From Dermacentor variabilis (lineage: Eukaryota > Arthropoda > Arachnida > Ixodida > Ixodidae): a stretch of 64,000 nt of DNA. The position numbers were made by a program, and so were the translations under genes. The stretch covers positions 153,843,105 through 153,907,104 of the forward strand of contig NC_134572.1 in assembly GCF_050947875.1 (NCBI RefSeq). Direction: 5' to 3'. Below the pieces are notes generated by a model. That model was not told where the DNA came from and did not search any database. It saw only the letters and a list, made by a program, of their open reading frames with translations. Of this stretch, positions 14,499 to 63,360 are shown in pieces. Within the stretch, counting starts at the first letter, position 1, and each line of letters begins with the position of its first letter.

Positions 14499-14767
14499 AG
14501 AGAGAGCGATAATTTAATTGAAAGAGGGCAGAGATGTCGGCCTCAGCTAAGGCGCTCTAGCCTGCTACTCTCCACAGGGGGAGGGGGAACGGGGACATAA
14601 AGGTGTGATGAGGGATGATGATGACATCGCAAGAGGGATGCGCAAAGGTGAAAGCAAGTTCAACACTCTGATGATAAACACTGGCAAATGTCATCCATGA
14701 AGCCACTATCAGGTTTCCTAGCAAGTCTGTAGTCACCAATTCAAGTGAACTTAAATATAGAGGCAAG
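14499..14767 (+). mobile_element. SINE-like insertion G1 with 11-bp target-site duplication
   Basis: This 269-bp piece interrupts the RT of LINE B and is absent from the paralogous site in copy 2. It is flanked by CCCTCGCAAGA at 14488-14498 and 14768-14778. It begins with gagagagcgataatttaatt and has the core ctctagcctgctactctcca. A related, more diverged sequence occurs at 48775-48905. No poly(A) tail or clear Pol III box is visible; the class is inferred from length, target duplication and repetition. Confidence 0.65.
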
Positions 14768-14993
14768 CCCTCGCAAGACTACCTGAGCAGGTCAACCAGA
14801 CCCCTGATGTTTCATATGCGCTACACGCAGACAGCATCACGATCCGGACGATGCGAGGGTCACACCTTCAGGTCAATGTCTGGGATCTGGTTAACCCTCG
14901 CAAGACTATCTGAGCAGGTCAACCAGATCCCAGATGTTGCACATGCACTACACGCAGACAGCATCACGATCCGGACGACGCGAGGGTCATACC
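14768..14993 (+). repeat. 127-bp local duplication with an inverted-repeat joint
   Basis: Sequence from 14768 is repeated from 14895, both starting CCCTCGCAAGACTA and covering the RT palm. The end of the first unit (14876-14897, tgtctgggatctggttaacc) is an inverted copy of 14917-14938 in the second. Copy 2 (about 57350-57440) has a single unit and no inverted joint, so the event is private to copy 1. Confidence 0.75.
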
Positions 14994-15639
14994 TTAGGGA
15001 TCGGCTGCAGAAGGCCGTCGACATCGTCACCGCTTACTTACGACAGGGCAGCTTGTCCTGTGTCCACAAAAGTCTGAGCTGCGCGCGCGTAACACTACCG
15101 CTCTACCTAGAGATCACGGTGTGCGTGGATTGCATTGCTGTACCCAAGGTGGATCGTGCTCGCACTCTTGAACTACACGTGCAAGTGAACGGGGAGGTTA
15201 ACTACACTGTCTCTCTCGTTTTCCGGTAGATCGAAGATACTCTGACCATGATTCGGCGGGTCTCCAACAGGCGCTAAGGTATACGAGAGTGGGACCTATG
15301 GCGCCTTGTGGTGGCCTGCAAGATCACTGACACTATTTACCACTTTCCCTCCAAAGACTTACCCAGTCGGAGAAGATGTTGGTCTACGCGATGCTGTGAA
15401 AGGCGACAAAATTTGCGCACGTCCTCCCACACTAAACCGCACGAAACATTTGCTAGCTCTAGGGACGCATAACATTCTGGGCGTGTTGCTGGGAGGTCTG
15501 TGCGCCAGTCACAGACAACGTCTTTTTCTCACACTCACTGGACGGCACCTTCTCGCGAGATAGGGATATTTGGTTTTCCATAATGACCAAGAAGACATCG
15601 CCATCAGTCTTCCGACTAGGATCCATACAGCATTAAAGA

Positions 15640-16515
15640 CGCACCTACTACCACAAAACGTGCATCCTGAGCATGATGCGGGATGACGACGAGCCCGTGT
15701 ACTTATACTTGGTGCGCATGTTCGGTGATATGCCTGAGACAAATACCCTATACACGGATACCGATCGGTGCCGCAACGGGTACTCCGCGGTAGAATTGGA
15801 TAACGCTCTAAAATTTCTTACGGCTGCCTCCTTGCGGAGTTCTACACCTACAGAAGCATAATTCTTTGGAGTAGCGGATGCTGTGCGATACGCTCTCCCC
15901 ATTCCTGGGGAGGTGTATATCGTAACCGATTCCCAGCAAGCATGCCGAGCATTTCCGAGGGGACGCGGCTTCTCCGAGGCGACTTTCCAGATCCTACACC
16001 AGTCACCGAAACACACACACACAAACACATCTGGCCTACAACTCATCGACTTGCTCTGGACACCAGGCCATGCCTCACTGCAAGGTAATGACCGCGCACA
16101 GGCGGTCTCTCGAGAACGTACCATTAGAGCTGCCTGGCATGGTTAAAATGGTAGTGCACATCAGATGGGGGCTCCATTCACATAAAGAGACATATTAGGA
16201 TGCTACAACCGGGCTAGACACACCATGGACTCTCCGCCACAGGCGTATTCGCGAGAGGAAGTGGTGGCACTCCGCCAATTCCAAACAAAAGTATTTCCCA
16301 ACCTCCTCTCCCTACATAAATTTTATCCTGTCACCTTTGCAGGCTCCTGCCTGGGCTGTGGCAACTGCCCCATGGCGTTCGAAGTCACGGTGGAGTGCGC
16401 CGCAAAATTATTCGCTCCCCTGCCAGTTATCCTGCACGCCATCTGCACCAAAGAAATGTGGGAAGATGTCCGAGCCGTGGGGCCTCACGAGGTTCGCCGG
16501 GCTCTAGTTTAACGG
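15640..16515 (+). pseudogene. LINE B copy 1 ORF2: RNase H and zinc finger
   Basis: RNase H blocks read DTDRCRNGYSAVE with TLYTDTD for the first Asp region (about 15750), GEVYIVTDSQQACRAF (about 15910, second Asp), and LLWTPGHASLQGNDRAQAVS (about 16048). The C-terminal part from 16225 gives MDSPPQAYSREEVVALRQFQ and TKVFPNLLSLHKFYPVTFAG, then CLGCGNCPMAFEVTVECA, a degraded version of the C-x2-C...H...C finger in which the His is lost. The frame ends with TAA near 16510. Copy 2 has lost most of this part. Confidence 0.75.
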
Positions 16516-16629
16516 GCCCGTGTTGCTGAGTTCTTTCTAGGGGCCCCGCACTAGGGGTCCCTCCCACACTCTTGCATTTTTAATAACAATGTTTATTCTC
16601 TCTCTCTTTATCTAAAGGATCTCATGCTT

Positions 16630-17180
16630 AAGTTGCACACGTGTGTCCTTGCTTTTTATATTCCTGAGCGAGTGACCACAAATTTCGCCGCATCATGCGC
16701 ATTGGCTCGGAAAAGCGTTCCGACATACTGGTAATCAAGTGTGTTTCGTTCAGTGACTCAAACCATGCGATCAGCAGTCGCCTTGTTCCTTCTGATATGT
16801 TCCAATTCGATGGGTTTTTTCAATGGATTCAGTGATTACTTGTAATTTTCTTGAGCCCACTTCCTTCAATAGCTATTGAAATGACAAGCAAGATTCGCGG
16901 GCATTTGTATCAGGTATGATGTAGAACACAATGTTGTGCTGCCTACTATGATATTTAGGTTCATCAATCTTATTTTGGAGTAGGTGTATCGCCCCCTGCT
17001 GTATATTATAGCGAGTGGCAAACTCCGCAATGATATATCCTAAGTTGGCCAATACTAACGTTTTTTCTTTCATTGAAGACACACATGAAGCCAAATCATT
17101 TATAGCTGCCTTCTGTTCCCCTTGATTCGCCTCAATAGTATTAACGTTTCGAACAATCATCTTCTTACCATCCTTAATTT
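16630..17180 (-). pseudogene. Element C ORF1 (coiled coil plus RRM-like region), truncated
   Basis: The reading IVRNVNTIEANQGEQKAAIN is followed by heptad-like sequence, then LLQNKIDEPKYHSRQHNIVF and YIIPDTNARES. That pattern (coiled coil, then basic N-x-x-F/Y-G/I-I/L-P-D) is typical of ORF1 proteins of CR1, L2 and L1 LINEs. After a stop it continues as ESIEKTHRIGTYQKEQ and, in a shifted frame, SLAQEYKKQGHTC before LINE B begins. The protein would bind element RNA as a trimer. Copy 2 has the same arrangement at about 58500-59060. Confidence 0.6.
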
Positions 17181-17394
17181 TCTTTAGTGTTGCAACAGCG
17201 CAATGGCCGGGACCCATTTCCATATGACCACCGAGTATTAACAATGAGAAATAAAATGCATAGCTACGCAAGATAAAAACGCGACGCCATGTGCAGCTTC
17301 TGGCATCTGAGTGCATACGTACATAGTTTTGCAGGATATGGGGTGGAACCGGCAGGCTAAGAACGGCAAATTGTTTGCAAGGTAAACATACACT

Positions 17395-18030
17395 AAGCTG
17401 CACGAGAAACAATACGTGCGTGGATGCACAGACCTAAATCTACCGCTATCATGCTCCGGAGAGACACATCGGTCTACCGCCTTTAGTAGGCCAGTGATAG
17501 TGGCTGTGAACCAAGATTCGTTGGCTGTTGCTTGACATATGCTGGATTCCATAGTTGGGGACATCGTCAGACCCCGATTGAGCGCCTTGGAAATTGCTTC
17601 ACTGTTACATGCGAGTACTTCGGCGATGTTGGCGATAACCCTGTGGCTATTCCATTCGTCGTCTATTGAAAGCGCTCTGGAGCTACATGCAAGCTGCACG
17701 AGAAGCAGAACATCCGTGAGCGGCACAGACTTAGAACTACCGCCTCCACGCTTCCGAGAGACAGAGCAGTCTACCGCATTTTTAGGCTGGTGCTAGTGGC
17801 TGTGAGCCAAGGTTCGTTGACTGTTGCTTGACATATGCTGGATTACACAGTTGTAGGCGTCGTCAGTGCCAAATTGAGCGCCTTGATAATTTCTTCACTG
17901 TTACAATGCCAGAACATTGGCAATGTTGGCGACAACCCTGTGGCTATTCAATTCGTGGTCTGTTGAAAGTGCTTTGGAGCTAAATTCACGCTGCACGAGA
18001 AGCGGAACATGCGTAAGCGACACTGCCATC
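17395..18030 (-). repeat. Tandem units of about 298 bp at the 5' end of element C
   Basis: The motif near 17470 (tctaccgcctttagtaggcc) recurs at 17769 (tctaccgcatttttaggctg), and gcacgagaagcagaacat-type sequence occurs at 17398, 17695 and 17994. This makes two full units plus a partial one. Copy 2 has one unit plus a partial (59277-59610). The period is not a multiple of three and the frames do not carry over, so the units are probably untranslated, like the promoter monomers of mouse L1. Confidence 0.7.
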
Positions 18031-18060
18031 GCACTGCCGGTTCCATGTCCCCTGATATGT

Positions 18061-18567
18061 GAGCAGCTCAAGCTGTCGTTACGTGACCCTGTGAGTGGTA
18101 ACGAGTGGTAATATAGAATGTACACATCCAGAAAAGAGCGTCGCATGTGTTGTTTGTGAAATTTACTCTCTCAGACAAAAAAATCAATTTCCCCGCTATG
18201 TTTGTCTGTAGGTATAACACCCGACATCTAGATCCTGAGTTTTCAAAAATAGAAGAAATACACTGAAATGAACAACACTAATACTGCGTCACAATATCAT
18301 TGGGCGTTGAGATCGTATGTGACATAGTCTCTTCGTGTGTCTGAGCTGGCAATATGTTGTACTATCTGGCAAAAATTACCTCGGATAAAAGCTAGCGTTG
18401 TGGCGAATATTCCTCAAGATGCTTGCGAGTTTTCCTAAGAATTGTCTCGGAAGAAATGGCATACCATCGACCAAGAAGCCTACATCCTCACATTTGTTGT
18501 GGCCATTCTTTAATGCAGCATTTCCGTTTTCTTAGCGCAGGGGGGGGGGCGGGCAGTACAAGCTCAG
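18061..18567. other. Duplicated flank between element C and the Gypsy insertion
   Basis: Non-coding. Matches about 59640-60150 in copy 2 (for instance ataacacccgacat at 18211 and 59796). It includes a G run at 18541-18549 and ends at the Gypsy target site. Could be more of element C or plain flanking DNA. Confidence 0.55.
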
Positions 18568-19173
18568 TGTTGCATCTGGGTCGCAAGCCCCAAGGGTAGC
18601 GTTGGCCTGGCGGCCTGGGGCCCAACTGGGAGCATCCGAAGGTCCTGGCAAAGCATGAGTTGACTGCTAACAGAACAACTTGTTTATTGTAGCATCGCAA
18701 AAGAGCGGCCGGTCAGGTCGACCGAAGTGGAGAGACGGGAGAGCACGTTACTCGACGGAAGAATTCGAAGCCTCTCTCTGCATCCGGGGCAGCTGCTTTT
18801 ATACTCTCGGAGTCGAGGGCAAGAAGGAACGGCTTGCGAGAGGCGCCCGTGACGGCGGGGCACGGACACGTTGAGGGACACGTTGAGACAAGAAGTGACG
18901 CATCCGCCTGGCCGGCGCCGGTCAGACCTCCTCGCTTCACAGTTGGGGAGCTCCTCTCCCCGGCTGCCGCGCTTGGACAAGCGTGGGCACCAACATGCAC
19001 ACACACTCACACACACACACGAAGACACGTGGCATTGAAACATGCCTGGACGCGCTTGGCAGGAAGTGTTACGGCAGCGCTGAACGGGCCGAAATGTGCG
19101 CCGCTTTGAATTAAGCCCCGGCGTCCGTTGCATCCGCACCGGCTATACCGCACGTCGATGGCGAAACGTAACA
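18568..19173 (-). repeat. 3' LTR of the Gypsy element (minus strand)
   Basis: 606 bp, matches the other LTR. TATAAAAG complement at 18796-18803 and AATAAA complement at 18683-18688. On the minus strand it is preceded by a G-rich run (ggcggggcgg at about 19175-19186) that may be the polypurine tract, although it is interrupted. Confidence 0.85.
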
Positions 19174-19680
19174 GACCGCCCCGCCGGGAGAAGGAGATCC
19201 CGATGGTCAGGGGACTGCATCCGCTGTCCGGAGGGATGTCGATCGATGATGCTCATAACCGAACTCGGTCGTCCTTCGGCGTTTCTTGAGCGCAGCGCAC
19301 AGAGAAGGCCTTGTTCTCACGTTCAGGTTCACACAGGACACTGCAAAGTGACTTCGGGAGAGTTGTCTTTTTGTTCTCGTTCCCAGCAAGCGTTAGAACT
19401 ACGCCGAAACTCAACCGATAAGTCAGCAAGCACGACACAACCCTCACTAAGCCCTGCCAGGCTCTTTCCCCTTTTATACTAATGCCTACTTCCTTACCGT
19501 AGTCTAGCAGCACTCAGAACGCGTCCACAAATTGGAAAATTGCACTAGAAAGCACGTCACGACATTGAAACACTAAACAAAAGCAATATGTTAAAAATCC
19601 TGCCTCAGGAAGAAAACATCAGTAACAAACAATTTTGAAGCTGATTCCTACGTTAGGGGCCTCGACTTAAGCCATCGGCA
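19174..19680 (-). other. Gypsy internal tail between integrase and 3' LTR
   Basis: About 500 bp with no RT or RNase H motif on either strand. If the family has an integrase-before-RT order, this is where RT and RNase H were lost. Confidence 0.5.
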
Positions 19681-20808
19681 TTACCGTTGAGACTCCCCTT
19701 TTTGTAACGCACCTAAAAGGAAGATTGTTGCAAAGCGAGGCTCCAGCACAGAAGGCGGCCATTTATGGAAGAAATGGTCTGCAGCCATTGGAGAGGGCAG
19801 TGATCCGTCTCGAAGCATGTGAAGCGGAGACCGCAGCGAGCGACCGTACACCAGCTCAGCTGGCGAAAACCCCGTAGCCGCATGCGGCGCGGTCCTTAAT
19901 GCAAACAATAACCCAGGCAGACACAGCTCCCAGTCAGTTTGTTGTTCAAACCACAATGCTCTCAACACGCGCTTCATGACGGAGTGGAGCTTCCCAACGG
20001 AATTCGACTGTAGGTGGTACACTGAGCTTTGTAACAGCTTTACCCCACACCTTTCAAGAAAGGCTGTCGTCAAAGCGCTAGTAAACTCTGTGCCCTGATC
20101 TGACTGGATTTCCGCAGGAAAACCAACTCGCGCAAATATGGACAGTAGTGCATTGACTATCTCAGCTGAGCTGAGTTCTTTAAGCGGCAATGCTTCAGGG
20201 AACTTTTTCGCTGGGCAGATCACAGTCAAAATGTGTCTGTACCCCGTGGTTGTTACCGGCAGAGGTCCCACTGTATCAATAACGAGCCGTCTATAACGCT
20301 CTGTAATGATAGGTACCAACTTCAACGGCGCCCTCGATTTGTCCCCTGGTTTTCCCACCCGCTGACAGGTGTCACATGTCCTCACAAAGTGTTCTGCGTC
20401 ACGAAAACACCCTGGCCAATAGTACTCTTGCAAGAGACGGTCCTCAGTTTTCTTAACTCCTAGGTGTCCAGACCACGAACCCCCATGCGACAAGCGCAAC
20501 AGATCCTGACGGTAGCACTGAGGCACGATCAGCTGATCGAACTCCACTCCCCTGCGGTCTAGATACTTCCTGTACGGAACCCCACCTCTTTTCACAAAAC
20601 GAGCATTTTTCTTGGCGATACCTTCCTTGACATTGCAGCGCATGTTTTCTAGGCTGCCATCCTTATTTTGCTCGGCTATCAAAGCCGACCGCCTGACTTT
20701 TAGCAGCCTATTAAGTCCATCTGACGTAGGCGCGATGAGCGAATCTGCCGATGGCTCTTCTAACTTTCCCGTGTCGGGCATTTCCTCTCCAGTAACTCGT
20801 GCCTTCAA
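19681..20808 (-). pseudogene. Gypsy integrase, catalytic Glu replaced by Lys
   Basis: 375 open residues. The HHCC zinc domain has H108, H115, C145 and C148 (SHGGSWSGHLG ... CDTCQ). The catalytic core has D178 (VIDTVGPLP) and D237 (IQSDQGTEF), but the Glu expected 35 residues after D237 is K273 (SNSVGKLHSVMKR). The end (about residues 330-375) no longer matches the usual C-terminal domain. The region upstream connects to gag-protease by a frameshift near 20840 with no room for RT. Integrase would insert cDNA; this copy cannot. Confidence 0.85.
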
Positions 20809-20944
20809 CGTTACAGGCTCAATTTTATTCAGTTCGGAGTGATCTGAATATCAGCTTGCTGAGCCTCCGACCCTTTCTCATTGTTCGACAACGTCGGCCC
20901 CGCTACTACCGCCTTTGCAGCGAGCTCCCGAACTCTCGATCTGG

Positions 20945-22408
20945 TTAAGGCCTGAACGCTAGCCTCACCAAACAGACGCCCCTTCTCGCGCAGGAGGTGA
21001 TCGGACCTGTTCGAAAATTGGTACGGGTACTAGGGGGCAGCATAGATGACACTGCGGCCTCCGTCTCAAGTGCTCCGAAAGGTCCTTCAATAAGCACTTT
21101 TGCTACGGGCAGACGCACACTATGAGCTCCCACGGCTTGCTTGATCCATGCGCACTCGTCCGTGAACATATCGGGTTCTACGTAAGAGGGGTCAACTACA
21201 TCCATTGTAGCTGCGGAATCGCGAAGCACTCGGCACTCTTTCCCGTTCACGAGGAGGCCTCGCATGTAAGGCTCGAGAAGCTGCATGTTCTCGTCAGTGC
21301 TGCATAAAGACAAAAACACGACCTTTGTTTTCGTTTTTGGACACTGCGCCGAAAAGTGACCCGGCTTCTGGCACGTATAACACACGCGCGCTTGCCTCAT
21401 CGTGAACCGCTTTCTGTGTTCGGCTTCGGCTGCCGCCATCTCCTTACGTTCGGTCGGACTGCTTTCACTCGCATCCACTCTACGTGTGTCCCCCTTGCTC
21501 TCATGGGCGTTAACTTCGGCCTCTCAAACTTTGAGCCAAATTCACCCTTTTGACCGTCCTTAGCTCCGCGAGCCCAACGCGTCACAAACTCCTCGGCTAG
21601 CTCGGCGGCTTTAGCCACGTACTAATGTCTGGCCTATCCAAGACCCAGTACCGCCCGTTCTCAGGTAACCGACTATAGAACTGTTCCAGCCCGAAACACT
21701 GCATAACTTTCTCGTGGTCACCAAACGCTTTCTCTTCTTTGAGACACTCCTGCATTTGACATAAGCCTGTAGGCAAACTCTGCATATGACTCACTTCTGC
21801 CTTTCTCATTTTCCCGAAACTTCCGACGGAACGCCTCCACTGACAGCCTGTACTTTTTAGCAGACTCGATTTGACTTTGTCGACATCCTCTGCCTCCTCT
21901 CTCTTCAAGCGAGCGATTACGTCGGCCGCCTCACCGGGTAACAAAGTGAGCAAGCGCTGTGGCCACGTTTCCCGAGAGAACCCCTGCTTCTCGCACGTTC
22001 GCTCAAAGTTAACCAGGAACAAACCAATGTCCTCTCCAAGCTTAAACGGCCGCATCAGGTCAGTCATTTTGAACAATACTCGTTCTCCTGCACCGTGTGC
22101 CTGACTTCCATTACGAGCGCGTTCCATCTCTATCTCGAGACGCTTCATTTCCAAAGCGTGTTAGGGTTGCGCTCTTTTTCTTTCTCTTGTTGCTCTCGCT
22201 CTTTCTGTTCTTTACGTTCGCGCTCCTGTCTTTTTGCCGTCTCCCTCTCCTCAACGGTCTCAAGGCATTCCGACAGCTCGTCATCCTCAGCTTCTAACGC
22301 AAGAACAGCCCTTAGCAGTTCTGGTTTTCTGAGTTTGTCTGAGACATCCAGACCCAACTCTCTTGCAAGCTCCAGCAATTTCGGTTCGCGCAACGACTTC
22401 AAATCCAT
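20945..22408 (-). pseudogene. Gypsy gag and protease, frameshifted
   Basis: Starts at ATG 22408 with MDLKSLREPKLLELARELGL and a Glu/Arg-rich coiled coil. It continues from 22154 as capsid-like sequence (MTDLMRPFKLGEDIGLFLVN, WPQRLLTLLPGEAADVIARL). From 21478 it carries a CYTCQKPGHFSAQC knuckle (C-x2-C-x4-H-x4-C, 21382-21341), then a protease-like block CRVLRDSAAT with the DSA triad at 21220-21212. Frameshifts at about 22150, 21610, 21470 and 21030 break it. Gag forms the particle; the protease would process it. Confidence 0.8.
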
Positions 22409-22723
22409 GGCTGATCTGAATGCTGCTTTCTCTACTGCCTACCACTGTCTTGCCGCAAACTAACCCGGCAGCAACGATAACCACAACTACCAGCTCTGTT
22501 TCTAACACTAACAAAAGCCTGGCAAAGCTCAGAAGAAGAAAGTCCCGCACTCACCAAACCTCGCAGCCAAGAGTCCAGCGCAGTCGTTCCGCTGCAGGCA
22601 ACCAGTCATCACACAGGGCTCGTTGCACTGCTCCCGGATCGTCGTTGAGCTGCTCAGCATACAGTCAACTGCATCTCTTCGCTGCTGGCCTCCGTTGTCG
22701 CGGTCTCACCGCTGGCAAACAGT

Positions 22724-23333
22724 TGTTGCAAATGGGTCGCAAGCCCTAAGGGTAGCGTTGGCCTGGCGGCCTGGGGCACAACTGGAAGCATCCGAAGGTC
22801 CTGGCAAAGCATGACTCGACTGCTAACAGAACAACTTGTTTATTCTAGCATCGCAAAAGAGCGGCCGGTCAGGTCGACCAAATTGGAGAGACGGGAGAGC
22901 ACGTTACTCGACGGAAGCATTCGAAGCCTCTCTCGGCGTCCGGGGCAGCTGCTTTTATACTCTCGGAGTCGACGGCAAGAAGGAACGGCTTGCGAGAGGC
23001 GCCCGGGACGGCGGGGCACGGACACGTTGAGAGACACGTTGAGACAAGAAGTGGCGCATCCGCCGGGCCGGCGCCGGTCAGACCTCCTCGCTTCACAGTT
23101 GGGGAGCTCCTCTCCCCGGCTGCCGCGCTTTGACAAGCTTGGGCGCCAACATGCACACACACATACTCACACACACACACGAAGGCACGAGGCATTGAAA
23201 CATTCCTGGACGCGTTTGGCAGGAAGCGTTACGGCAGCGCTGAACGGGCCAAAATGTGCGCCGCTTTGAATGAAGCCCCGGCGTCCATTGCATCCGCGCG
23301 GGCTATACCGCGCGTCGATGGCGAAACGTAACA
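22724..23333 (-). repeat. 5' LTR of the Gypsy element (minus strand)
   Basis: 610 bp, ends TGTTAC...GCAACA when read on the minus strand. TATAAAAG (complement at 22952-22959) lies about 110 bp upstream of AATAAA (complement at 22839-22844), the expected U3-R order. A (CA)n tract sits at about 23153-23180. I found no clear tRNA primer-binding site next to it. Confidence 0.85.
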
Positions 23334-25965
23334 GCAGCCAACGTCTGACTACGTGACATATCAATGACAGCACCTGAGGCAGTCTTTATCTTGCGCAATT
23401 GCCTGCTTTGTGTCCTGCTTATGTCCGTGTTGCCCGCACATCTTGCACGCTGGAACATTCCTCGCTGCATGGCGACAGACAGCAGCAATGTGTCGACTCC
23501 AGTCGAACTGATATTAGTTTTGGCATTGTTTAGCGACGTGTCATAGCGTATTTGTTGACTTCTTCGGCACTGTCCGAAATTCTTCCGACGCTATTTATGC
23601 ATTTAATTTCAACGAAGTGGTTGGTCGTCTCGGCAAGATATGTTAGCATTATGCAATCACTCTCCTTAAGGAAGACTCCAAGCTCGGAATGGCTGCAGCG
23701 TAAGGAGGGTGCACATCACACAGGGTTATGCATACCTGCAAGCGATTTATGTACGTTTGCCGCATCAATCCAGTGATATAAGTATGTCCAGATTCTAGTC
23801 GCTAGCTACATTTGTGTTTCGTAATCGTCTGTCCGTACTTTCGAAGAATTTTCCTGGTGTCACTGACGCGCACAATGAAAGCGCTGCAGTCGTCATTTCT
23901 AAACCTTCTGGTAGTCAAGAGAGTGCGCAGGAATTATTCCACATATGACAGTGAGTGCTTTGACGGTCAAACACAAGCTTACGTTGACAGCCAGTGTTCC
24001 TTGTACTTAGTGTTGTCCAGTACTCATTGCTTAATGCCGCTGCAAGTACTCACGGAACTCATCGAGTTGCTCGTTCCACAGCAGCAATAGATGTTGAGAA
24101 TTAATGTCGAAGGAAGCTGCGCCGTTACGGAGTTGTTCGAGGCAGAAGGCCCGCTCTTAGCTTCTTCTTGGCGGTTTATCTTGAACCGCCGGATAGTTAT
24201 CAGCCTCAAGTTGAGTAAATGCGGCATTTCTGCAGCTATTTCTCACTACCTCTCGCACAGCTATTTTTTCTTGCGTCTGCCTACACTGTTCTTCCTAATC
24301 CATTCACAAAATTCCACGGCAGACAAGCGTAACTCTGCTGCGTTAGTGGCTGAATTATCAAAGGCCGTGCTGTTAGTCAAGGCAAATCCCTTCTCCTGCG
24401 TACAGTTCGCACGTCGGTTTCGTCATAGCCGCTTACTGTTTAAAGCGTTTAGCTTTCATTTGTAACCAACTGCATTCTCTTGTATCTAACACTTTTCTTC
24501 AGTGGAGGCAGATGATAGTGCGCTCTTAAAAGACGTAAAGAGACTGCGATGATAACAATACTCACTAACGCGAGCTTTGAGCACAGCTCGGAACGGGTTG
24601 TCATTTCGCCATATATTGAGGCAAAGAGGTGGGAGCGAAATCGCCGCTTCGACTGGCAGTGGGCTGGTGCTGTCAGCGCCTTCGCAGAGAGAGTGGCATT
24701 ATGGGATCACTGTGGTGATGAGGAGCGGCATCGGAGCCAGCTGTGGAAGAATACGACGAACGCGCGAGCATTCGCACGAGCACATTCGTGTGATTACGCC
24801 AATGGACGCCAACGAGCCGGATGTGGAAGAAGGCGACGACGAATGCGCCAACAGTGGCGCGAGCACGTTGCTGCGGTTACGCCGAGGGACTGTGACGCCC
24901 ACGCCAGGAACAAGCGCTTAAGAGCTGCACTCTGAAACCGCTTGGTGGCATGGTGTTAAGCGGTGCTTTCACGCTATCTTCCCTCGTGACAGCTAGCGCT
25001 TTTAGACGCTGCGCCTCAGGTCGAAGAGCACATTTGTTTCAGACCTGCTTAGTTGCAGTGTCTGAGTCAACAGCGTCACAACCATTTTTTGGCAGTGACA
25101 CTGACAGACGGTGCACGGGGTTTAAAAGATGCCCTTGAGGAAGTGGCAATCGAAGTAGGGCTTGACTCACATGTACAGGTAAGGAACGACCTTAGGTCAA
25201 CGTGACCCTCCCCACACACGGTCAACATGATCTCCCCCATAACCATCTTCTGAGGAATGCGAAAAGCAATGTTCATTAATAATCCGGGTTGGTTTGGGTT
25301 ACGAAAAAGCCAGTGCATGGGGATGACATACTTAGCTTGCTTACAATTTTGTCCTTCCTCCTTTTCTAAATGAAATTAAAGGCCCACGTGTACCACACAT
25401 ATAAGTTTTCTTGATTGCAGCGAAAAATGAATGCGAAATGTTTGTAGGGAATAAGGCCACAGGAACACCAATATGGAATTGTACAAGAGCATATGACAAT
25501 ATATGTGGAAATGGAAAATATGACGTTTATTATAACGCCTGTCTACCTTTCTGGAAACTGTAAGTAACTTTTATCTGTTTTTTCTTGTTTTAAAGATTGC
25601 GACAAGTATATAGCCCAATTCTATATGCTCATGTGAGTTCCTCAAAAAAGGGAAACAATAGATGTGCAACAAATCGTCCAGTCCAGGGAGCTAACGAAAG
25701 AAAAATTTAATAATTAGCTTTTTAACTATTTCGTTTAGAGCAAATGTTACTATTACAAAATTGTACTTGATCTCTAGTTATCCATAGGGTATCCCCCATT
25801 ATTATTGGCAAAAAATGCAATCTCCTTAGATTAAGATAATGTCAAATTGCTCCGCTGGCAGTCGTAAGAAACTGCCAACTTGTATTCCTATGTATTCTTG
25901 TGCTAGCAGATCTCTGTCGACATACCGGGCGAACTATCTCCCGTGTCGTAGTCATTACTATGATA
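23334..25965. other. Duplicated block of unknown nature, copy 1
   Basis: Matches about 60155-63360 along its length: tatttatgcatttaatttcaa at 23592/60411-like, cgcgagcacgtt at 24858/61530, ggtcaacatgatc at 25222/61860, and atagttatccata at 25776/63125. Plus-strand frames at 23812-24090 and 24091-24465 are open in copy 1 but broken in copy 2, and two frames overlap at 24549-24935. None shows a known domain. It could be the far 5' side of element C or ordinary flanking DNA. Confidence 0.6.
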
Positions 25966-53283: not shown

Positions 53284-53900
53284 TTGGTTCCGCTGGATCC
53301 CGCCTGGTTCGAAAACGCGGTCCAGATACCGCCCAGTGCACGAGAAAAATCCAAGTCGCGTTCCCGATCACGCTTCCAGTCATCCTGCGCCCGCAACCGC
53401 GTGAAGCGTCAGGCTGCCCTGGCATTGCAGGCATCCGCTCAGCCCTACGACAAGGCACCATTCGGCAAGCCGGCAATCTCAGCAGCTGCCCCAGACCAGC
53501 AGCAGCCACGGGCCATGGAGAACACTAAAACCAAGGCGGCACCTCGGGAGGTGTGTTGCCCAAGGGATCACGTACAGCTCGCTCCCCCCACTCTTCATGC
53601 CACAAGACGTCCCGCTCCACTCTCCCACCGAACACCAACAATCATACCTTTTCCGAAATCTCGCGGCTCCTCCGTGACATGCAATCGCGTCACGCGCAAC
53701 CGCATGCACAGCTGGAGGCTCTAATAGAGCGCACAAATGCCAGAATACAGCCAGCAATATATAGACAGCGCGCGGCATGAATCTCTAGCGCTACGCCAGG
53801 AAATCATAACCGCAATGCAAGCATCAGAGGAGCGGATGCATTCCCTATTCGCCGAGTTTCTCCCCTATTCGGAAATACATCTTAACTTGAAGCCCCTGCT
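53284..53900 (+). pseudogene. LINE B copy 2 ORF1 C-terminal part
   Basis: Arg/Ser/Pro-rich sequence (KTRSRYRPVHEKNPSRVPDH, RLPWHCRHPLSPTTRHHSAS) matching 11870-12090 of copy 1 in wording and frame breaks, then on to a helical segment near 53700-53880. The zinc knuckles of copy 1 lie upstream of the break and are missing here. Confidence 0.65.
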
Positions 53901-54263
53901 TGACATGATTTAGACGACGCCTGTCGAACAACGCAACAAAAGGAACGCAATGAACGTCTTCAGCGCGTTCGCACCAGGCGTCACTTATATCAAGTCAAGC
54001 ATGAGCTTAAAGTTGTATTGGTGAATTGGGAGGTTCGTCTCCCGTTTGGATTCTATAGGAACCCCGCTGCCGGCTTTCCAGTCCGCACGGCCCCAACTAC
54101 ACCTCACAGGTGCAAGATCACAAGCACACTGACACGCGGCCGCTTCCACTCACGAGGATGATGGCGGCCCTTAGCCAGCAGCAGATCGTGTTCTGGCAGA
54201 GGAGCTGCAGGGTTCACCGTCAAAACAGGGCGTCCCTGCAACAGCATTCTGCTGGGTCCAGGC

Positions 54264-54381
54264 ACTCTCCTGATATTTCCTCCTACAAGAACGAAACTGC
54301 TCCCCTTCTTGTAGGCTTTCCGAAGAAGTACGTCAAGAAGGGGAGCAGTTTCATTCTTGTAGGAGGAAATATCAGGAGAGT
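54264..54381. repeat. 48-bp inverted repeat with 22-bp loop at the LINE D 5' junction
   Basis: Arms 54264-54311 and 54334-54381, one mismatch (c/t). The left arm is ordinary LINE B sequence, also present in copy 1; the right arm is its inverted copy. Loop taggctttccgaagaagtac plus gt, source unknown. Confidence 0.95.
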
Positions 54382-55549
54382 AACAGCGACACTCAAGCTT
54401 GAAGCCCTAGGAGTCCATAATACTATAAGAGAAATTATAGACGCCCACCTCACAAGCCAACGAGAACGACTAGCCCTCACACCAACAGGAAGGACAGTCC
54501 TAGCGCGCCTAGGCTACCCCACACACGGCAAAGGCCACGAACAAGCAATTCATCTGGCCCCCAACTTCCGGGAACACATCAAGGTAGCCCCTATCCCCAG
54601 AAGCATGCACCCGGAACATCATGCCGATCGTCGCCAAGCTCGCGCAAAAACTCTACAGACAAAATATGGCAGTCTCCCCACCACACTATACACAGATGCC
54701 GCGCAGTACCCCCAAAAGGCAGCCATGACGGCCAGCGTTGTCGACTATAACCTACAAGAGGTGGTCTCGATGACGTTCCGCACTGCCAGCGCCCTCGTAG
54801 CGGAGGAGACAGCCATCGCCTTGGCCATCACCTCTAGTCCGACCAACGAGTACGTCACAATCATTACTGACTCCCAGGCGGCTTGCCGGAGCTACGCGAG
54901 AGGCAGAATATCTTCAATCGCCCACCGACTCCTCAAACAAGCCTCCCAATTGCCGGACGTTGAAATAGTGTGGACTCCAGGACACGAGTCCCTCCGTGGA
55001 AATCAGCGTGCGCACGCTGTAGCCCGAGCTCATGCCTCCCTGGCGCCACAAGAGAGGGATACGGCCGCCTCCATGGAGCCCGTACCTTTACAATACAACG
55101 CCATACTACAACACCACAGATTCAACAGACGAAAATACCCGCCTCCACACAAGACCCTCTCACGTGAAGACGCCGTAACATGGCGACAACTACAAACCAA
55201 CACATACCCCCATCTAAGCAGACTACACGCAATACACCCTACACTATATTCATACAAATGTCCCCTTTGTAATGATTACGCCTCCCTATATCACACCACA
55301 TGGGCGTGCCCCAACGTGAAGGCGGCCCCGCAAATACCCGAGCACCCACACCCACACCCACACCCACACCCGAGCAGTGGGAGGCCGTGCTGACTAGTTC
55401 GGGCCCTCGTAACCAGCAGCAACTGGTGCGGCGGGCCCGGGAGACAGCAAGAGCCGCAGGAGCCCTGGACTAAGGGCGCCTCCCGCACAAGCAGAAAGAC
55501 ACCTGCTTGCCCTTTCTTTTTAATAAATGTTTCTCCTCCTCCTCCTACT
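54382..55549 (+). mobile_element. LINE D: 5'-truncated LINE inserted in LINE B copy 2
   Basis: About 1.17 kb carrying only RNase H and zinc finger, with a 3' end aataaatgtttctcctcctc. It is flanked by CTGCTCCCCTTCT (54297-54309 and 55550-55562), a 13-bp target duplication present once in copy 1 (about 12690). Between the left duplication and the LINE lie 22 bp of filler and a 48-bp inverted copy of the upstream target (54334-54381). The open frame is intact over about 340 codons, so it is younger than its host element. Confidence 0.85.
54390..55470 (+). pseudogene. LINE D RNase H and zinc finger, within a chimeric frame
   Basis: Part of one open frame from 54110 to 55393. Its first 65-90 codons come from LINE B ORF2 and from the inverted flank, the rest from LINE D. 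Blocks: LEALGVHNTIREIIDAHLTS, TLYTDAAQYP (first Asp), VAEETAIALAITS (Glu), VTIITDSQAACRSY (second Asp), WTPGHESLRGNQRAHAVARA, then CPLCNDYASLYHTTWAC. A (CCACAC)n expansion at 55346-55371 shifts the frame; EQWEAVLTSSGPRNQQQLVR and the stop follow in another frame near 55473. Confidence 0.8.
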
Positions 55550-57960
55550 CTGCTCCCCTTCTCTTTCGTGCTTCACCACTTTGTGGTGAAGCACGACTGG
55601 GTAGTTCCCCACTCGGGGGGGCTCTAGTATCAAAAAACTTAACGTACAACTCCCATACTATAAACATTGACATCCCACCCCAAGTTCTCCAAATCATTAC
55701 ACAGTGCAAGAACAGTCGCAGTGTCCACATACTCAATGCGTACAGTGCTCCGCACCCATGCACACACTCATTTCATCGCTTTATAATAGAATTTAGACGT
55801 CTTGGGCGCATCCTTCTCGTATGCGGCGACTTCAACGCTAAGCATATGGTTTGGGGGTACCGCAAATCTGCAGGCAAAGGTGCTCCTCTGGGATGAATTA
55901 TGTAACTTGAGATATACTTGATATATACTATATGTAACTTGAGATATATACAGACCCAGGGTAGGTAACACGTTTCGATAACAGTGTCACACGTGACTCA
56001 TGCCCTGACTAAATTGTTACCAAAAATACAGGACCAGTGACTGCACATGGTCCTTTCGACAAATATCCAGGCAGTGACCATTACATCTGGACCACTACGC
56101 TACCACTGCACAGTGCACACTGTCTTGAGCGCAAGGTATGGATCACGGTTTGCTCGTGGCTCAGGGAGCGTCGACAGACACCTCCTGGAGGGGTAGGACA
56201 CGAGCACTGGCACGAGTCCCTTTCTGCTGACCAAGACGCGTGTACGCGCACACTGGTTACCACAACTGCAACCCCGGTCGCGGACCCACACCTACAACAT
56301 CTTTGGGAGGCACGTACAGTGCTCACGCGGCGTTGGAAATGCCAACGCCTCAATCGCTAGGTTCGTCTGCGTATCGACAATATTTCGCACGAGGCACAAG
56401 AATCTGCTCAAAATCTCGGGTGGAACAGCTGGCGAGGTTTCTGTGAACGTCTCTCAGTCATCCTAGTCGCTGCGACAAGATGGTCGATACTTCGCGCATT
56501 GGCGGTTCTATGCGCTACAAATACACCAAGATTTCATCGCCTACGCAGCGTAATATAGAAGTACCGAGACGACTCATCTGCTCTTCTCAAAGAGCTAGAA
56601 AAACGTTTCATGTCTACCGGTCCACCATCACAGTATCCCGAATACCCGTACGCAGAAGAGCCTAACGAGTAACTCAACGTGGACATCATAATCAATGAGG
56701 TTCGCGTGGTACTTCAAGATCTCCGTCAAAACGCTGCCCCAGGGGCAGATCATATCGGATTTCCCACCCTGCGAAACCTCAGTGATTCAGATCTACATCA
56801 TCTAACAAACCCATTCAATCATCAATGGCACCAAGGCATGCTTCCGCAGGCATAGCGTCAAGCTGATATTTCGCTAATACCTAAACCAGGCAAGCCCATT
56901 GCCATAGAAAACTTACGAGCAATATCCCTTGCTTCCTTAATCGGAAAGTTAATGGGACGCGCGCTTTTGCGCCGTCTACAGTCTTTCTTCAAACTACAGT
57001 CTTTTTTCTGCCACTCACAGTTTGGATTTCTGGAACATCTCTCCACGCAGGGCGTGCTTCTAGAGTTAAAGATGTTAGCAGCCCTCCGTTCCGTGCCCAC
57101 AAGAAGGTCATCCTCGCCCTTTATCTAAAGTAAGCATTGGATGACATGGTACACGACTTGATTCACCGAAAGTTTGCTGAAGCACGCCGCGGTAGCCACG
57201 TGTATAACTACATTTGTTCCTTTTTGTGCGAGAGAATAGACACCATTGGTATAGGGCCACATCTGTCGCACACGATTCGTCTCACAGGTCGCGGCACCCC
57301 ACAGGGATCAGGTCTACCCCCCACTCTATTGAATATCACCATCGCAAGACTGAGTGGCTCGACCAGATCCCCGATGTTGCACATGCGATTTACACAGACG
57401 ACATCACGATCTGGATGACGCAAGGGTTAGACGGGGCCACTCAGGATCGGCTGCAGCAGGCCGTCGACATCGACACCACTTACGTATGACATGGCACCTT
57501 GTCCTGTGCTTCACAAAAGTTCGAGCTTGTCCATATACGCGCGCGTAGCATCACCCCTCTACCCGACATCACGGTATACGTGGATGGCGCTCCTGTACGC
57601 CAGGTTGACCGTGCTCGTACTCTTGGACTACAGGTTCAAGTGAAGGGAAGGTGAATTGCACTGTCTCTCTCTTGCCCCGGCAGACCGAACATACTCTGGC
57701 CATGATTCGGCGGGTCTCCAACAGGCGCTCAGGTCTACGAGAACGGTGCCTACTGCGCCTGGTGGAGGCCTCCATGAACGGTCTCATTACTTACCACCGT
57801 CCCTCCTACAGACTTACCCAGTCGGAAAAGATACGGGTCGACGCCATGATTCGAAAGGCGACCAACCTTGCCCACGGCCTTCCACACTACACCACCACGA
57901 AACGTTTGTTAGTGGAAGGGGCGCATAACACTCACGGCGACGAGTTGGAAGCTCAGTAGT
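55550..57960 (+). pseudogene. LINE B copy 2 ORF2: endonuclease remainder, linker and RT
   Basis: Endonuclease and linker pieces mirror 12690-13640. RT blocks: VVLQDLRQNAAPGADHI-like (about 56705), a VKLMGRALLRRLQSFF-like block (about 56945), ARRGSHVYNYICSFLCERID (about 57183), LTGRGTPQGSGLPPTLLN (about 57280) and AIYTDDITIWMTQ with intact YTDD (about 57387). The thumb reads RSGLRERCLLRLVEASMNGL and ITYHRPSYRLTQSEKIRVDA. Stops and shifts are frequent. Confidence 0.75.
55567..55595. repeat. 13-bp hairpin, 3-base loop, in LINE B copy 2
   Basis: CGTGCTTCACCAC, TTT, GTGGTGAAGCACG. Copy 1 reads cccgcttctgcactttacgg at this place and has no hairpin. Confidence 0.9.
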
Positions 57961-58424
57961 CCAGTCAAAGACAATGTCTTTTGTTCACACCCATTGGGCT
58001 GTACCTGCCCTCAAGATATTCAGTTCTCTACAATGACTATGAAGACATCGCCATCGCGGTTGCGACTTGCGTCCGTACAGCCATAAAGGTGCACCCACCA
58101 CACGAAACATGCATGTTGAACATGATGCGGGACGACGACGCGCCCGTGTACGATACCTGGTGCTTATGCTCGGTGATATGCCTGAGACAAATACCCCATA
58201 CACGGATGCCAATCGGTGCCGCAACGGGTACTGCGCTGTAGTTCCAATACTATAGCCATCCAGCGCCATCCAATGGCGCTGAAACATTTTTTACAGCCGC
58301 CTCCTTGTGGGGTTCTACACCTACACAGGGAGAACTTCTTGGAGTAGCGCTTGATGTGCGGCACGTTCTCCACATTCCTGGGCAGCTGTATGTCCTAACC
58401 GATTCCCAGCAAGCATGCCACGTC

Positions 58425-58468
58425 TTTTTGACGGGGTGCGGCTTATCCAAGGCGCACCCCGTCAAAAA
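58425..58468. repeat. 16-bp hairpin, 12-base loop, replacing LINE B copy 2 3' part
   Basis: TTTTTGACGGGGTGCG (58425-58440) and CGCACCCCGTCAAAAA (58453-58468). Left of it the sequence follows LINE B RNase H (TDSQQACHVF); right of it only the last LINE B bases remain. About 600 bp of the copy 1 counterpart (about 15985-16590) are absent. Confidence 0.9.
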
Positions 58469-58480
58469 ATGCTTACTTCC

Positions 58481-59640
58481 TCTGTCTCTCTATGTAAAGG
58501 ATCTCATGGTTTAGTTGCATACGTATGTCCTTGCTTTTATATTCCTAAGCGAACCGAAACAAATTTTGCCTTCTCTTGCGCACTGGAGCGGCAAAGCCTT
58601 CCGACATACTGATCAAGTGTTTTTTTTTTCTGTGACTCAAACCTAGTGTTCAAGGGTTGCATTGTTCGTGCTGGAGATGCTCCAAGTCGATGAACTTCTT
58701 TAATTGATTGAGCATTAGCTTATAATTTTATTGAGCATACTTCCTTCAAAGGCATTTGAGGTAATAAGCAAGATTCGCGGACATGTGTATCAGGTATGCC
58801 GCAGAACACAAGTTTTTGCTGCCTACTAAGCTTTTCAAATTCATCAATCTTACTTTGGAGCAGCTGTATCGCGCCGTGCTGTGCATCATAGTGTGTGGTG
58901 CACTCCGTAATGGCGAATTATAAGTTTGCCAGTACTAACGTTCTTCCTTCCATTGACGACACACATGAGGTCAAATTATTTATAGCTGCCGGATGTTCCG
59001 TTTGATTCATTGCGATACTATTAAGGGTTTCTAACAATCACGTTTTGGCCATGCAAAATTTTCTTTAGCGTTGCATCATTGCCATGGCCGGGATAGATTT
59101 CAATATGACCGCAGAGTATTCAGAATGACAAATAAAAGGCAAAGCGATGCAACAAAAGATTAGGCGCCGTTAGAGCTTTCGACCATCGCATTGCATACGT
59201 ACACAGTTATACAAGATACGGGGTGGCACCGGCAAGATAAAAACGGCAAATTTCGAAGGTAAACTATAACTAACCTGCACGAGAAGCAAAACGTGCCTGA
59301 GCGACACACATATAGCACTACCGCTTCAACGCTCCGGAGAGACACTGCAGCCTACCGTCTTTTGTAGGCTGGTGATAGTGCCCGTGAGCCAAGGTTCGTT
59401 GGCGATTGTTGGACATATGCTAGATTCCACAGTTGTTGGCGTCGTCAGTCCCCAATCGAGCGTACTGAAAATTTCTTCATTTTTACATGCGAATACTCGG
59501 CGATATTCACGAGAACCCTGTAGGATTTCCATTCCTGGCCTGCTGAAAGCGCTCTGGAGTTACATGCAAGCTGCACGAGAAGTAGAACGTGCACGAGCGG
59601 CAGAGACATAGAACTATGGGTTACATGCCCCTGATTTATG
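58481..59640 (-). mobile_element. Element C copy 2 (ORF1 remnant and one 5' unit)
   Basis: Same layout as 16620-18060: the LINE B junction, ORF1 remnant (about 58500-59060; aagattcgcggacatgtgta and taccttc...gttaatagcct-like words correspond), then one 298-bp-type unit plus a partial unit (59277-59610). Frames are more broken than in copy 1. Confidence 0.6.
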
Positions 59641-62600
59641 AGCAGCTGAACTTGTCGTGACATGTCCCTCTCAGTGATAACGAATGGTTATATAGAATGT
59701 ATATGTCCAAAAACGGAGCATCGCATATGCTATTTCTTCGTAAAATTTACTTTCCCAGACAAAAAAAGAACTACTCGGCTATTCTTGTCTTTGAAAATAA
59801 CACCCGACATTTACCTCGCGGGTTTTCAAAAATAGAAAAAGACGGAAATGAAGAACACTCTACATGATGCGGCATGGTATCATTTCACGTTGAGTTAGTA
59901 TTTGAGATTGCCCCTTCGTGTGCCTGTGCTGACAATATATGGTGCCATCTGGTACAAGATCACTTGGGGCAAAAGCAGCGTTGTTGCCAATATTCCTGAA
60001 GATGCTTGCAAGTTTTTCTAAGAATTCTCTCGTATGAACTGGCATACTATAACCTAGAAGTGGGCATCCTTTCGTGTGCTGCGCCTATTCCTTAGATGCA
60101 GTATTTCCGTAGTGTTTAATTTTTTTTCGGGGTGGGGGTGCAGTACCAGCGCAGCTGACGTCTGAATACGCGAGACTTCGATGACAGCACATGAGGCAGT
60201 TTTTCTTTGTGCAATCCAGTGATTTGTGTCCTGCGTGTGTCCAAGTTGCCCACACATCTCGCACGTTCGAGCATTCTTCGTTGCATTGCGATGGACAGGA
60301 GCAATGTGTCGAGTCCAGTCGAAGAGATATTAGTCTTCTTGTTTTTTTTTTTGACGTGTCACCGCGTATTTGTTGACTTCTTCAGCATTGTCCCAAATTC
60401 TTCCGATGCTATTTATGCATTTATTTTCAATGAACCAGTTGTTCGCCTGACCAAGAGATGTTAGCATTCTACAATCGCTCTCCTTAAGGAAGACGAGAAG
60501 CTAGGGATGGCTGCAGCGTAAGGAGGGCACACATCACACAGGGTTATAAATACCAGCAAACGTCTTACGTGCGTTGACCATACCAATCCAGTGATAGAAC
60601 TATGTCGAGATTCGAGAGCAAATAGCTACATTCGTGTTCGGTAATCCTCTGCCCGCGCTTTTGCAAACTTTTCTTGGTATGACTGAGACGCACAATGAAA
60701 GCGCTGTTTCCACCTATGACCGTGAATTCTTTTCCGGTCAAACACAAGCCAATGTTTCTTGTATTTAGTTTTGTTCAGTATTCATTCGCTCTTAGCTGCT
60801 GCAAGTACGCATGGAAGTCGTCGTGTTACTCATTCGACAGCAGCAGTAGATATTGACAAATAATGCCGAAGCGATCTACGCCGTTACGAGGTTGTTCGAG
60901 GAAGATGGCACGCTATTATATTTTAATGAAGGTTTAGCTTGCGCCAGCAGAAATTTATGAGCCTCTAGTTGAGTAAACGCGCCATTTCTGCAGGTTTGTT
61001 TTTCGGCTCTCGCACAGCTATTCATTCGTACCTCTGCCTAGACTATTCTTTCTTAATGCATTCACAAAATTCAACGCTAGATAAGCGTAACTGTGTAGAG
61101 ATAGCGGGTAATTTATCAAAGTCCGTGCTGTTAGCCAAGGCAAATTCCCTTCACCTGCGTACTGCTGGCCCCTCGGTTTCGTCATAACCGTTAACTTTTT
61201 AAACCGTTCAACTTTCTTTTGGAACAAACTGCATTTGTTTATCTGTTTTCTTCACGCGACGCAAAAGATAGTGCGGTCTTAAAAGACGCAAAAAGTGGGA
61301 GATGATTACGATATTCACTAATGCAATATTTGAGCGCAGCTCGGTGAGTGTTTTCATTTCGCTATATACTGAGGCAAAGGACTATGACCGAAATCGCCGC
61401 GCCGACTGGCAGAGGGCTAGTGCTGCCAACGCCTTCGCCGAGGGAGGGGCAAGTATGGGAACGCTTGCATGATTATCGGCAGCCGAGCTAGCTGAGGAAG
61501 AAGACGACTACAAACGCGCGAGCAGTGACGCGAGCACGTTCCTGTGGTTACGCCTACGGACTGTGACGTCCAACCCAGGAGCAAGTGCCTAAGAGCTGCG
61601 CTCTAAAACCACTTGGTGGCATAGTGTTCCGAATAATCCCTCGGGACAGCTAGCACTTTAATACGCTGGGCCTAAGGTCCAAGATGCAGACACTATTCTT
61701 TCAGAGGCTGATTAGTAGGAGTGTCTGAAAAGACAGCGTCCCAAACATTTTGTGGTTGGTGGCACTGACAGACGCTGCGCGGGGTTAAAAAGATGTCCTT
61801 TAGGGAGTGGCGCTCGAAGCCGGACTGCACTCAGGTGTACGGTTAAGGCACGACCTTAGGTCAACATGATTCCGCCAACATATGGTCAAACTTGATCTCC
61901 CCGATAACCACCTTCCGAGGAGTGCTAAAAGCAATGTTCGATAATAATCCGGCTTGGTTCGAGTTACGAAAAACCAGCGCTTGTGGTTGATGCGCTTAAC
62001 TTTCCTTTACACCCGCCGTAGTTGCTCAGTGGCTATGGTGCCGGCTACGGCGGCAGCTCGAGCTGCGACAAACAATGAAAATAACAGCAATGAATGCCAA
62101 AGAACCACTTTTTTATGTAACACATATACCGTGCCATGATGAATACGAACGTCGGTAAACTTTGGCTTATCATACATGCACAATGTGACAATCCCATTAC
62201 TTTTACAACTACTTTGGTGATGCGATGTTATATGCTAAAACGCTCTAAATTGTATTTTTATTTGTTCTGTCTTCTATTTCAATTGTCTCATTACCACCGC
62301 TGCGTGATCAGAACAACGTAGTTATGTCTTTGGGGCTTTGAATGTACCTGCTCGTGTGATCGACGCACTGAGAAATAAATGTAAAAAAAAATACTTGAAT
62401 TGAATAATTATTGTATATACCTTCTTTAACAAATTAATTTCATCACCACTTCTATACACACATTCTGCCTACAGAAGGAAGGCTAGAAAATAATTTCTAC
62501 ACAATAAATCCCTGCCACAGCGGCCGCATTTCGATGAGGCAAGAGGTGAAAACACCTGTGTACTTAGATTTAGATGCATGTTAGAGGACCCCAGGTGCTC

Positions 62601-63360
62601 GAAATTTCCGGGGTCCTCCACTACGGCGTGCCTCATAATGAGAAAGTGATTTTGGCACGAAAAACCCCGTCATTTAATTTTTTTACCTTTCCATTACAAA
62701 TTTTTCCTTCATCTTTTTCTAAATGAAAATAAAGGCCGACATATACCGCATATATAATTTTCTTCATTGCAGCGAGTAGGCCATGCGAAATGTTTGTACC
62801 GCATAAGTTCATTGGAACATCAATACCCGAATGTGACAAACAATACATGGTGCTCTACGGCGAACGAAAGTATAACGTTTATGATGAATCCTGTCCATTT
62901 TACCGGAAAACGTAAGTAACTTCATTTCTCGTTTAGCTCATTTAAGGATTGGAAGAAGTATATAGCCCAATTTGACATGGCCATGTGGATTGCTCAAAGA
63001 AGGAAATATTAAATGTACAACAGATCCTCCAGTCCTGGCCGCTAATAAAACAAAATTCAGTATATAATTTTCTGACTACTCTGTTTAGATCAAATGTTAC
63101 AATTACGAAATTGTATTTGATCTATAGTTATCCATAGGCTATCCGCCATTATTATTGGCAAAAATGCTATCTGTTTGAATTATTATCATGTGAAATATTA
63201 CCATGTGAATATCATTGTCATGTGAATATTATCATGTGAGCTCTGCTGGCAGTCATAAGAAAGTGTAAACTTGAATGCCAATGTATTCTTTTACTAGCAG
63301 CTCTCTGTCAACACAGCTGGCAAACTTTCTCTCCTGCCATCCCCATTGCTACGATGTTCT
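59641..63360. other. Duplicated block of unknown nature, copy 2
   Basis: Matches 18061-18567 plus 23334-25965 of copy 1, with the Gypsy element absent (empty site at about 60151) and a Ruka-like SINE added (62012). No frame with a known domain. Homology ends near 63360. Confidence 0.65.
62012..62686 (+). mobile_element. Ruka-like SINE copy 4, split, with target duplication
   Basis: Flanked by CTTTCCTTTACA (62000-62011) and CTTTCCATTACA (62687-62698). The tRNA-like head is at 62012-62045 (ccgccgtagttgctcagtgg) and the body at about 62512-62686 (agcggccgcatttcgatgag ... ttttggcacgaaaaacccc). About 460 bp of other sequence sits between. Copy 1 has no insertion at the paralogous place (about 25340). 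Confidence 0.75.

What the first reader, a model, noticed from the sequence alone, without database searches (positions are those of the whole stretch)
54264..58468. A series of copy-specific short-loop hairpins in the duplicated LINE B
Copy 2 has hairpins at 54264-54381 (48-bp arms), 55567-55595 (13-bp arms) and 58425-58468 (16-bp arms). Copy 1 has an inverted joint at 14876-14938 that copy 2 lacks. At each place the other copy has plain sequence, so these arose after duplication. Such foldbacks are the signature of short-range template switching during replication or repair. Four in about 5 kb of paired sequence is striking.
Basis: partly seen in the sequence, partly recalled or inferred. 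Interest (0 to 1): 0.75.

Follow-up and report, generated by a model that had tools for sequence, protein, structure and literature searches.

The report
Mobile-element insertion scar plus ordinary hairpins
The largest of these hairpins is a scar left when a jumping gene inserted and a growing DNA end folded back to copy the target beside it, while the other three look like ordinary DNA-copying slips; it is a neat frozen record of an insertion step but not a sign of unusual instability.

Summary
All four foldbacks are real and private to one copy, but they are not one series. H1 (54264-54381), the long one, is the 5' junction of a separate 5'-truncated LINE (about 1.2 kb) inserted into copy 2 with a 13-bp target-site duplication. 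In order: left flank and TSD; 25 nt of antisense LINE; 47 nt of inverted left flank; LINE body in sense (25 nt missing between the LINE pieces); tail; TSD. Best reading: twin priming, then snap-back of the top-strand cDNA onto the target flank, then joining to the first cDNA. H2 (13-bp foldback insertion), H3 (16-20-nt inverted insert at a 0.6-kb deletion) and H4 (inverted joint at a tandem duplication) fit template-switch or end-joining scars. The density is not clearly above this genome's background: 4 in 24,146 bp of both copies, 1.17 expected (P 0.03-0.05; without H1 0.11-0.15); whole window 5, 3.1 expected (P 0.20). Of 40 other fetched insertions of the LINE, 1 shows a plain twin-priming inversion and 0 a hairpin within 150 bp of the 5' junction. 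The parts are known; in ten searches of one paper library I saw no natural example of the combination.

The parts
54297..54309 (+). left target-site duplication CTGCTCCCCTTCT of the LINE insertion
   Evidence: identical 13 nt at 55550-55562; continuous in copy 1 from 12688
54264..54311 (+). H1 left arm: original target flank, template of the foldback (last 2 nt are antisense LINE)
   Evidence: collinear with copy 1 and with relatives
54310..54334 (-). 25 nt of antisense LINE (twin-priming product), loop of H1
   Evidence: 24 of the 25 nt match exactly, in reverse, in 17 of 40 fetched copies (18 of the 40 reach so far up, L018 among them; L038 differs), 25 nt upstream of the body start in 16 of the 17, the body word of the other being changed
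54335..54381 (-). 47-nt inverted copy of the left flank (snap-back product), H1 right arm
   Evidence: one mismatch in the 48-nt arms, at 54292
54382..55549 (+). 5'-truncated LINE body and TCC-rich 3' tail; RNase H domain within 54383-55390
   Evidence: 96.3-97.2% to L002-L008; PF00075 E=2.2e-7
55550..55562 (+). right target-site duplication
55566..55596 (.). H2: 13-bp foldback insertion, loop 3, starting 3 nt outside the right TSD
   Evidence: missing in 8 of 8 other copies aligned
58425..58468 (.). H3: left arm ancestral, right arm an inverted insert at a deletion of about 603 bp
14874..14939 (.). H4: inverted 22-bp joint between tandem copies in copy 1
   Evidence: other places lack room for it
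14768..14998 (+). tandem duplication (14768-14872 and 14895-14998, 91%) that carries H4
11871..25964 (+). copy 1 of the repeated unit (with later insertions)
53304..63355 (+). copy 2 of the repeated unit

Best explanation
H1 is a fossil 5' junction of a LINE insertion. Step 1 (inferred, standard target-primed reverse transcription): the bottom strand was nicked and primed reverse transcription from the 3' end of the LINE RNA. Step 2 (order of parts shown): the top strand was cut 13 nt away, and its TSD end ...CTTCT primed a second reverse transcription inside the LINE RNA (2-nt match at the primer end), giving 25 nt of antisense LINE, i.e. twin priming. Step 3 (product shown, enzyme inferred): this short cDNA end let go, folded back with about 1 nt of pairing (C at 54334 with G at 54311) and copied its own strand leftward: the first nucleotide of the antisense piece, the 13-nt TSD and 33 nt of flank beyond it. 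Step 4 (shown as a junction without microhomology): the end was joined to the first cDNA, which had stopped 25 nt short of the antisense piece. H2, H3 and H4 are small template-switch or end-joining scars, most likely independent of it.
For: TSD on both sides and uninterrupted sequence in copy 1 and in 7 relatives; the loop equals antisense LINE from 25 nt upstream of the truncation point, exact in 17 of the 18 fetched copies that reach so far up (18 of 40); the A at 54335 copies the T at 54310, which is not target sequence on either side, so the template was most simply the already extended strand (a one-base argument). A plain twin-priming insertion of the same family exists: L017, 27 nt inverted, then 10 nt of element missing, then body, with a 12-nt TSD. 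Snap-back of a cDNA 3' end onto cDNA or, less often, nearby target DNA is reported for R2-protein insertions in human cells (PMC11371274, passages read).
Against: It rests on one case: 0 of 40 other fetched insertions has a hairpin within 150 bp of the 5' junction, and 59 more listed ones were not fetched. Long hairpins also occur in this genome away from any end of this LINE: perfect 68-nt arms in L016, and 45-nt arms with mismatches in L016 and L030. The fold-back primer pairing is only about 1 nt. Which polymerase copied the flank cannot be read from the sequence.
Confidence: 0.77

Rival explanations
1. The snap-back of step 3 was done by host DNA polymerase theta during end-joining of the insertion's left end, not by the LINE reverse transcriptase (a variant of the best explanation, differing in the enzyme only).
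For: Reverse-complement snap-back inserts and single-nucleotide priming are described for polymerase theta scars (PMC5068794, passages; PMC4912351, title and abstract start in the listing).
Against: 47 nt with strand displacement seems long for this enzyme (recalled, not tested); PMC5068794 calls snap-back a minor part of its cases.
Confidence: 0.35
2. The hairpin was in the target before the LINE came, and the LINE inserted by chance at its foot.
For: Hairpins of this class occur in the flanks at about 1 per 20.7 kb; two fetched insertions lie by an inverted repeat (L024, L045).
Against: The loop itself is antisense LINE from next to the truncation point; no aligned copy has the hairpin; inverted repeats near the left junction are not enriched (1 of 38 against 2.8% of random places).
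Confidence: 0.04
3. All four hairpins are replication-fork template switches in an unstable duplicated region.
For: H2, H3 and H4 have inverted inserts and are copy-specific; 4 in both copies against 1.17 expected is borderline (P 0.03-0.05), and 0.0015 if only 5 kb of each copy is counted.
Against: H1 is a retrotransposition junction; without it 3 against 1.17, P 0.11-0.15; the 5-kb span was chosen after the fact.
Confidence: 0.06
4. H1 and H2, which lie at the two ends of the same insertion, were made in one event (snap-back on both sides).
For: H2 starts 3 nt outside the right TSD; by simulation one of 3 random hairpins lies within 5 nt of one given edge in 0.12% and within 35 nt in 0.84% of cases (one edge, roughly double for two; post hoc).
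Against: Similar 14-16-bp hairpins with short loops occur in flanks far from any end of this LINE; H2 lies outside the TSD; its arms are too short to date.
Confidence: 0.12

Closest known systems
Twin priming (5' inversion) in human L1
   Same: TSD, antisense 5' piece, small element deletion at the inversion joint
   Different: an inverted copy of the target flank lies between the two LINE pieces; 5' inversions are 639 of 2,068 (30.9%) human and chimpanzee L1 in PMC2912911 (Table 2 passage) against 1 of 40 fetched here
Snap-back 5' junctions of R2-protein insertions in human cells (PRINT, PMC11371274, passages)
   Same: cDNA 3' end primes copying of nearby target DNA in inverted orientation
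   Different: an engineered R2 system and, as I read the passages, the first-strand cDNA end; here a natural insertion and most simply the top-strand-primed cDNA
Short-range template-switch mutations (four-point model; PMC7954356, passages)
   Same: H2 and H4: private inverted insert making an inverted repeat
   Different: H3 also has a deletion of about 603 bp; H1 is not of this class
Polymerase-theta deletions with templated inserts (PMC5068794, passages)
   Same: H3: deletion with a short inverted flank-templated insert
   Different: no genetic test here; snap-back inserts are a minor class there

Membership tests
LINE insertion by TPRT (H1 element) | target-site duplication on both sides | tested here: met
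   13 nt identical, single in copy 1
LINE insertion by TPRT (H1 element) | dispersed copies sharing the 3' end, variably 5'-truncated | tested here: met
   123 genome matches to the 3'-end pattern; the 40 fetched start at many points of a unit of about 5.4 kb
LINE insertion by TPRT (H1 element) | endonuclease and reverse transcriptase in a long copy | tested here: met
   L021 ORF2: PF00078, PF14529, PF03372, PF00075; the window's piece holds PF00075 only
Twin-priming insertion | antisense 5' piece from upstream of the sense body, directly after the TSD | tested here: met
   54310-54334
Twin-priming insertion | antisense piece joined directly to the sense body | tested here: not met
   47 nt of inverted flank in between: a variant, not a plain member
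Template-switch mutation (H2, H4) | inverted local copy private to one lineage | tested here: met
   H2 missing in 8 of 8 aligned; H4 by spans of other places
Template-switch mutation (H2, H4) | significant under a pair-HMM template-switch model | not tested
   no detector was run
Polymerase-theta scar (H3) | dependence on polymerase theta | not testable with these tools
   needs mutants
Foldback-type DNA transposon (H1) | the arms recur as a pair elsewhere in the genome | tested here: not met
   of the 72 matches listed (40 of 248 candidates scored, so not exhaustive), only the window's own place holds the arms as a pair; elsewhere LINE parts alone; in relatives the flank is single

The most novel reading that the evidence does not exclude
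This LINE's reverse transcriptase itself, after twin priming, snaps back onto target DNA and copies past the TSD, and one insertion made hairpins at both its ends (H1 and H2); LINE integration would then be a source of hairpin-forming loci in this genome.
Probability: 0.1. Interest if true: 0.6.

Novelty: new variant of a known kind. Interest (0 to 1): 0.36.

Why it matters
H1 records the order of steps at a LINE 5' junction in one natural molecule: top-strand cut, internal priming on the RNA, fold-back onto the target, joining. Snap-back onto nearby target DNA has been reported for engineered R2 insertions in cultured human cells (PMC11371274). It also warns that scans for replication template switches in repeat-rich genomes can count retrotransposition junctions unless inserts are checked for TSDs.

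Tried and rejected
Rejected: one common cause for all four hairpins (H1 has a LINE junction anatomy). Not upheld: striking density, though P is borderline for both whole copies. Rejected: insertion preference for inverted repeats on the left side (1 of 38 against 2.8%; L018 and L023 left out). Looked at and set aside: L024 (long TSD with a 17-bp inverted repeat just left of it) and L045 (11-bp inverted repeat overlapping its TSD): these repeats lie in flank or TSD, not between TSD and body. A first-strand cDNA jump to the target was considered for H1: it needs an uncut template holding flank, TSD and antisense LINE in one strand, so I judged it less simple (reasoning only). Not tried: a template-switch HMM; a tree of the repeat copies; assignment of the LINE to a clade; naming the organism. 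Ten paper searches were answered.

Full report
Observation. A scan of the window for arm score 11 or more and loop up to 30 found 5 hairpins, the four named and a perfect palindrome at 26145-26178; three first-order shuffles gave 0, 1 and 0.

Copies. The two copies align in pieces between 11871-25964 and 53304-63355, at about 70-80%, with two short pieces at 87-88%. Searches of the genome found 8 further places with a piece of copy 1 and 11 further whole matches with a piece of copy 2 (40 of 397 candidates scored, so a lower bound). In the stretch 57300-57520 copy 2 is 88% identical to a place on C3 and 79% to copy 1, so the two copies are not a simple pair.

H1. Copy 1 12420-12700 matches copy 2 54034-54309, and copy 1 12688-12720 matches 55550-55582: between lies an insertion with a 13-nt duplication (54297-54309 and 55550-55562). 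The inserted body is 96.3-97.2% identical to seven other genome loci and carries an RNase H domain. The 25 nt after the left TSD are the reverse complement of LINE sequence; 24 of the 25 nt match exactly in 17 of 40 fetched copies. By their start points 17 of the 40 reach so far up, and L018 does so beyond an internal deletion; of these 18 only L038 has no exact match. The piece ends 25 nt before the body start in 16 of the 17; in L036 the body word itself is changed. Then come 47 nt of inverted left flank, with one mismatch to the flank (54292 C against T, at a CpG), then the body. H1 is therefore most simply the junction of one retrotransposition event.

Survey. The unit is about 5.4 kb, with endonuclease, reverse transcriptase and RNase H in ORF2 of L021. 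Of the 40, one (L017) shows an antisense 5' piece (27 nt, TSD before it, body after it); pieces under about 11 nt would be missed. Hairpins (score 11 or more, loop up to 30) within 150 bp of the 5' junction: 0 of 40. Exact inverted repeats of 9 or more within -250 to +40 are seen in many of the 40 (at most three printed per locus); those of 11 or more that I looked at lie in the flank, in the TSD or in the element itself, but a TSD of 8 nt or more next to the junction was recognised in only 15 of 40, so for the rest the place of such a repeat relative to the TSD is not known. Junction starts are by BLAST and can be off by some bases; L018 has an internal deletion, and L023 holds only about the last 40 bases of the element. 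The insert in the window is 97.25% identical to L021, fourth lowest of 34 rows, L021 included; rows aligned over 200 bases or less were dropped.

H2-H4. H2 is a 13-bp insertion, inverse to the sequence just before it, missing in 8 of 8 other copies aligned; its arms hold base changes private to copy 2. It starts 3 nt outside the right TSD of the H1 insertion, an unexplained closeness. At H3 the left arm is ancestral; the right arm is new and sits where copy 2 lacks about 603 bp that copy 1 has; another place has about 936 bp there. 5 of 5 aligned relatives lack the right arm, and the arms share a base change private to copy 2. At H4 copy 1 has a tandem duplication of about 105 bp (91% alike) with a 22-bp inverted joint; of the 40 places, 11 span the site of copy 2 whole without room for it, 26 span most of it, 1 in part, and 2 are copies 2 and 1 themselves.

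Density. In 186,289 bp of flanks of the 40 loci there are 16 hairpins of score 13 or more, 9 of them with sequence complexity above 0.6 (the 7 dropped are 6 AT runs and one TGTACA repeat). One of the 9 is longer than H1 (L016, 68-nt arms) and two have 45-nt arms with mismatches. All 5 of the window pass the same filter, H1 narrowly (0.63). This predicts 1.17 in the 24,146 bp of both copies; 4 are seen (Poisson P 0.031; binomial allowing for the background count 0.053); without H1, 3 (P 0.11; 0.15); for the whole window 5 against 3.09 (P 0.20). If one takes about 5 kb of each copy, P is 0.0015, but that stretch was chosen by the hairpins; four random points fall in so short a share of the unit in 20% of cases.

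Mechanism. Best reading: twin priming, snap-back onto the target, joining. Shown: the order and origin of parts. Inferred: strand, timing and enzyme. The enzyme may be the LINE's reverse transcriptase or polymerase theta. Papers: PMC11371274 passages, PMC5068794 passages, PMC2912911 passages, PMC2837659 passages, PMC12350158 passages, PMC7954356 passages, PMC4912351 listing only. In the ten answered searches of this one library I saw no natural insertion with an inverted target flank between the two LINE pieces; I read passages of six papers only, and most subscription papers are not in the library, so this is no claim of first sight.

Noticed in passing
18565-23334: A later LTR retrotransposon inside copy 1: direct repeats 18565-19174 and 22720-23334 (94%) around integrase-like and gag-like reading frames on the minus strand (names from recall of motifs, not a domain search).
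   Followed up: no
26145-26178: Perfect 34-nt palindrome that looks like two tRNA-type SINE ends head to head (B-box likeness recalled).
   Followed up: no
L024, oriented about 5760-5843: A LINE insertion with a target duplication of about 75-85 bp, far longer than the 8-15 seen in others, and a 17-bp inverted repeat at its left end.
   Followed up: partly
L016 3185-3334 (oriented): A perfect hairpin with 68-nt arms and a 14-nt loop, about 2.3 kb upstream of the LINE start.
   Followed up: no
55563-55596: H2 starts 3 nt outside the right TSD of the H1 insertion; closeness unexplained.
   Followed up: partly
14500-14767: About 268 bp in copy 1 missing from copy 2, bounded by the repeat AGCCCTCGCAAGA: perhaps another insertion.
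   Followed up: no
51321-51469: Tandem repeat with a period of about 8 bp (self-matches).
   Followed up: no
54059-55393: A 444-codon open frame runs from the flank through the H1 foldback into the LINE's ORF2, probably by chance.
   Followed up: no
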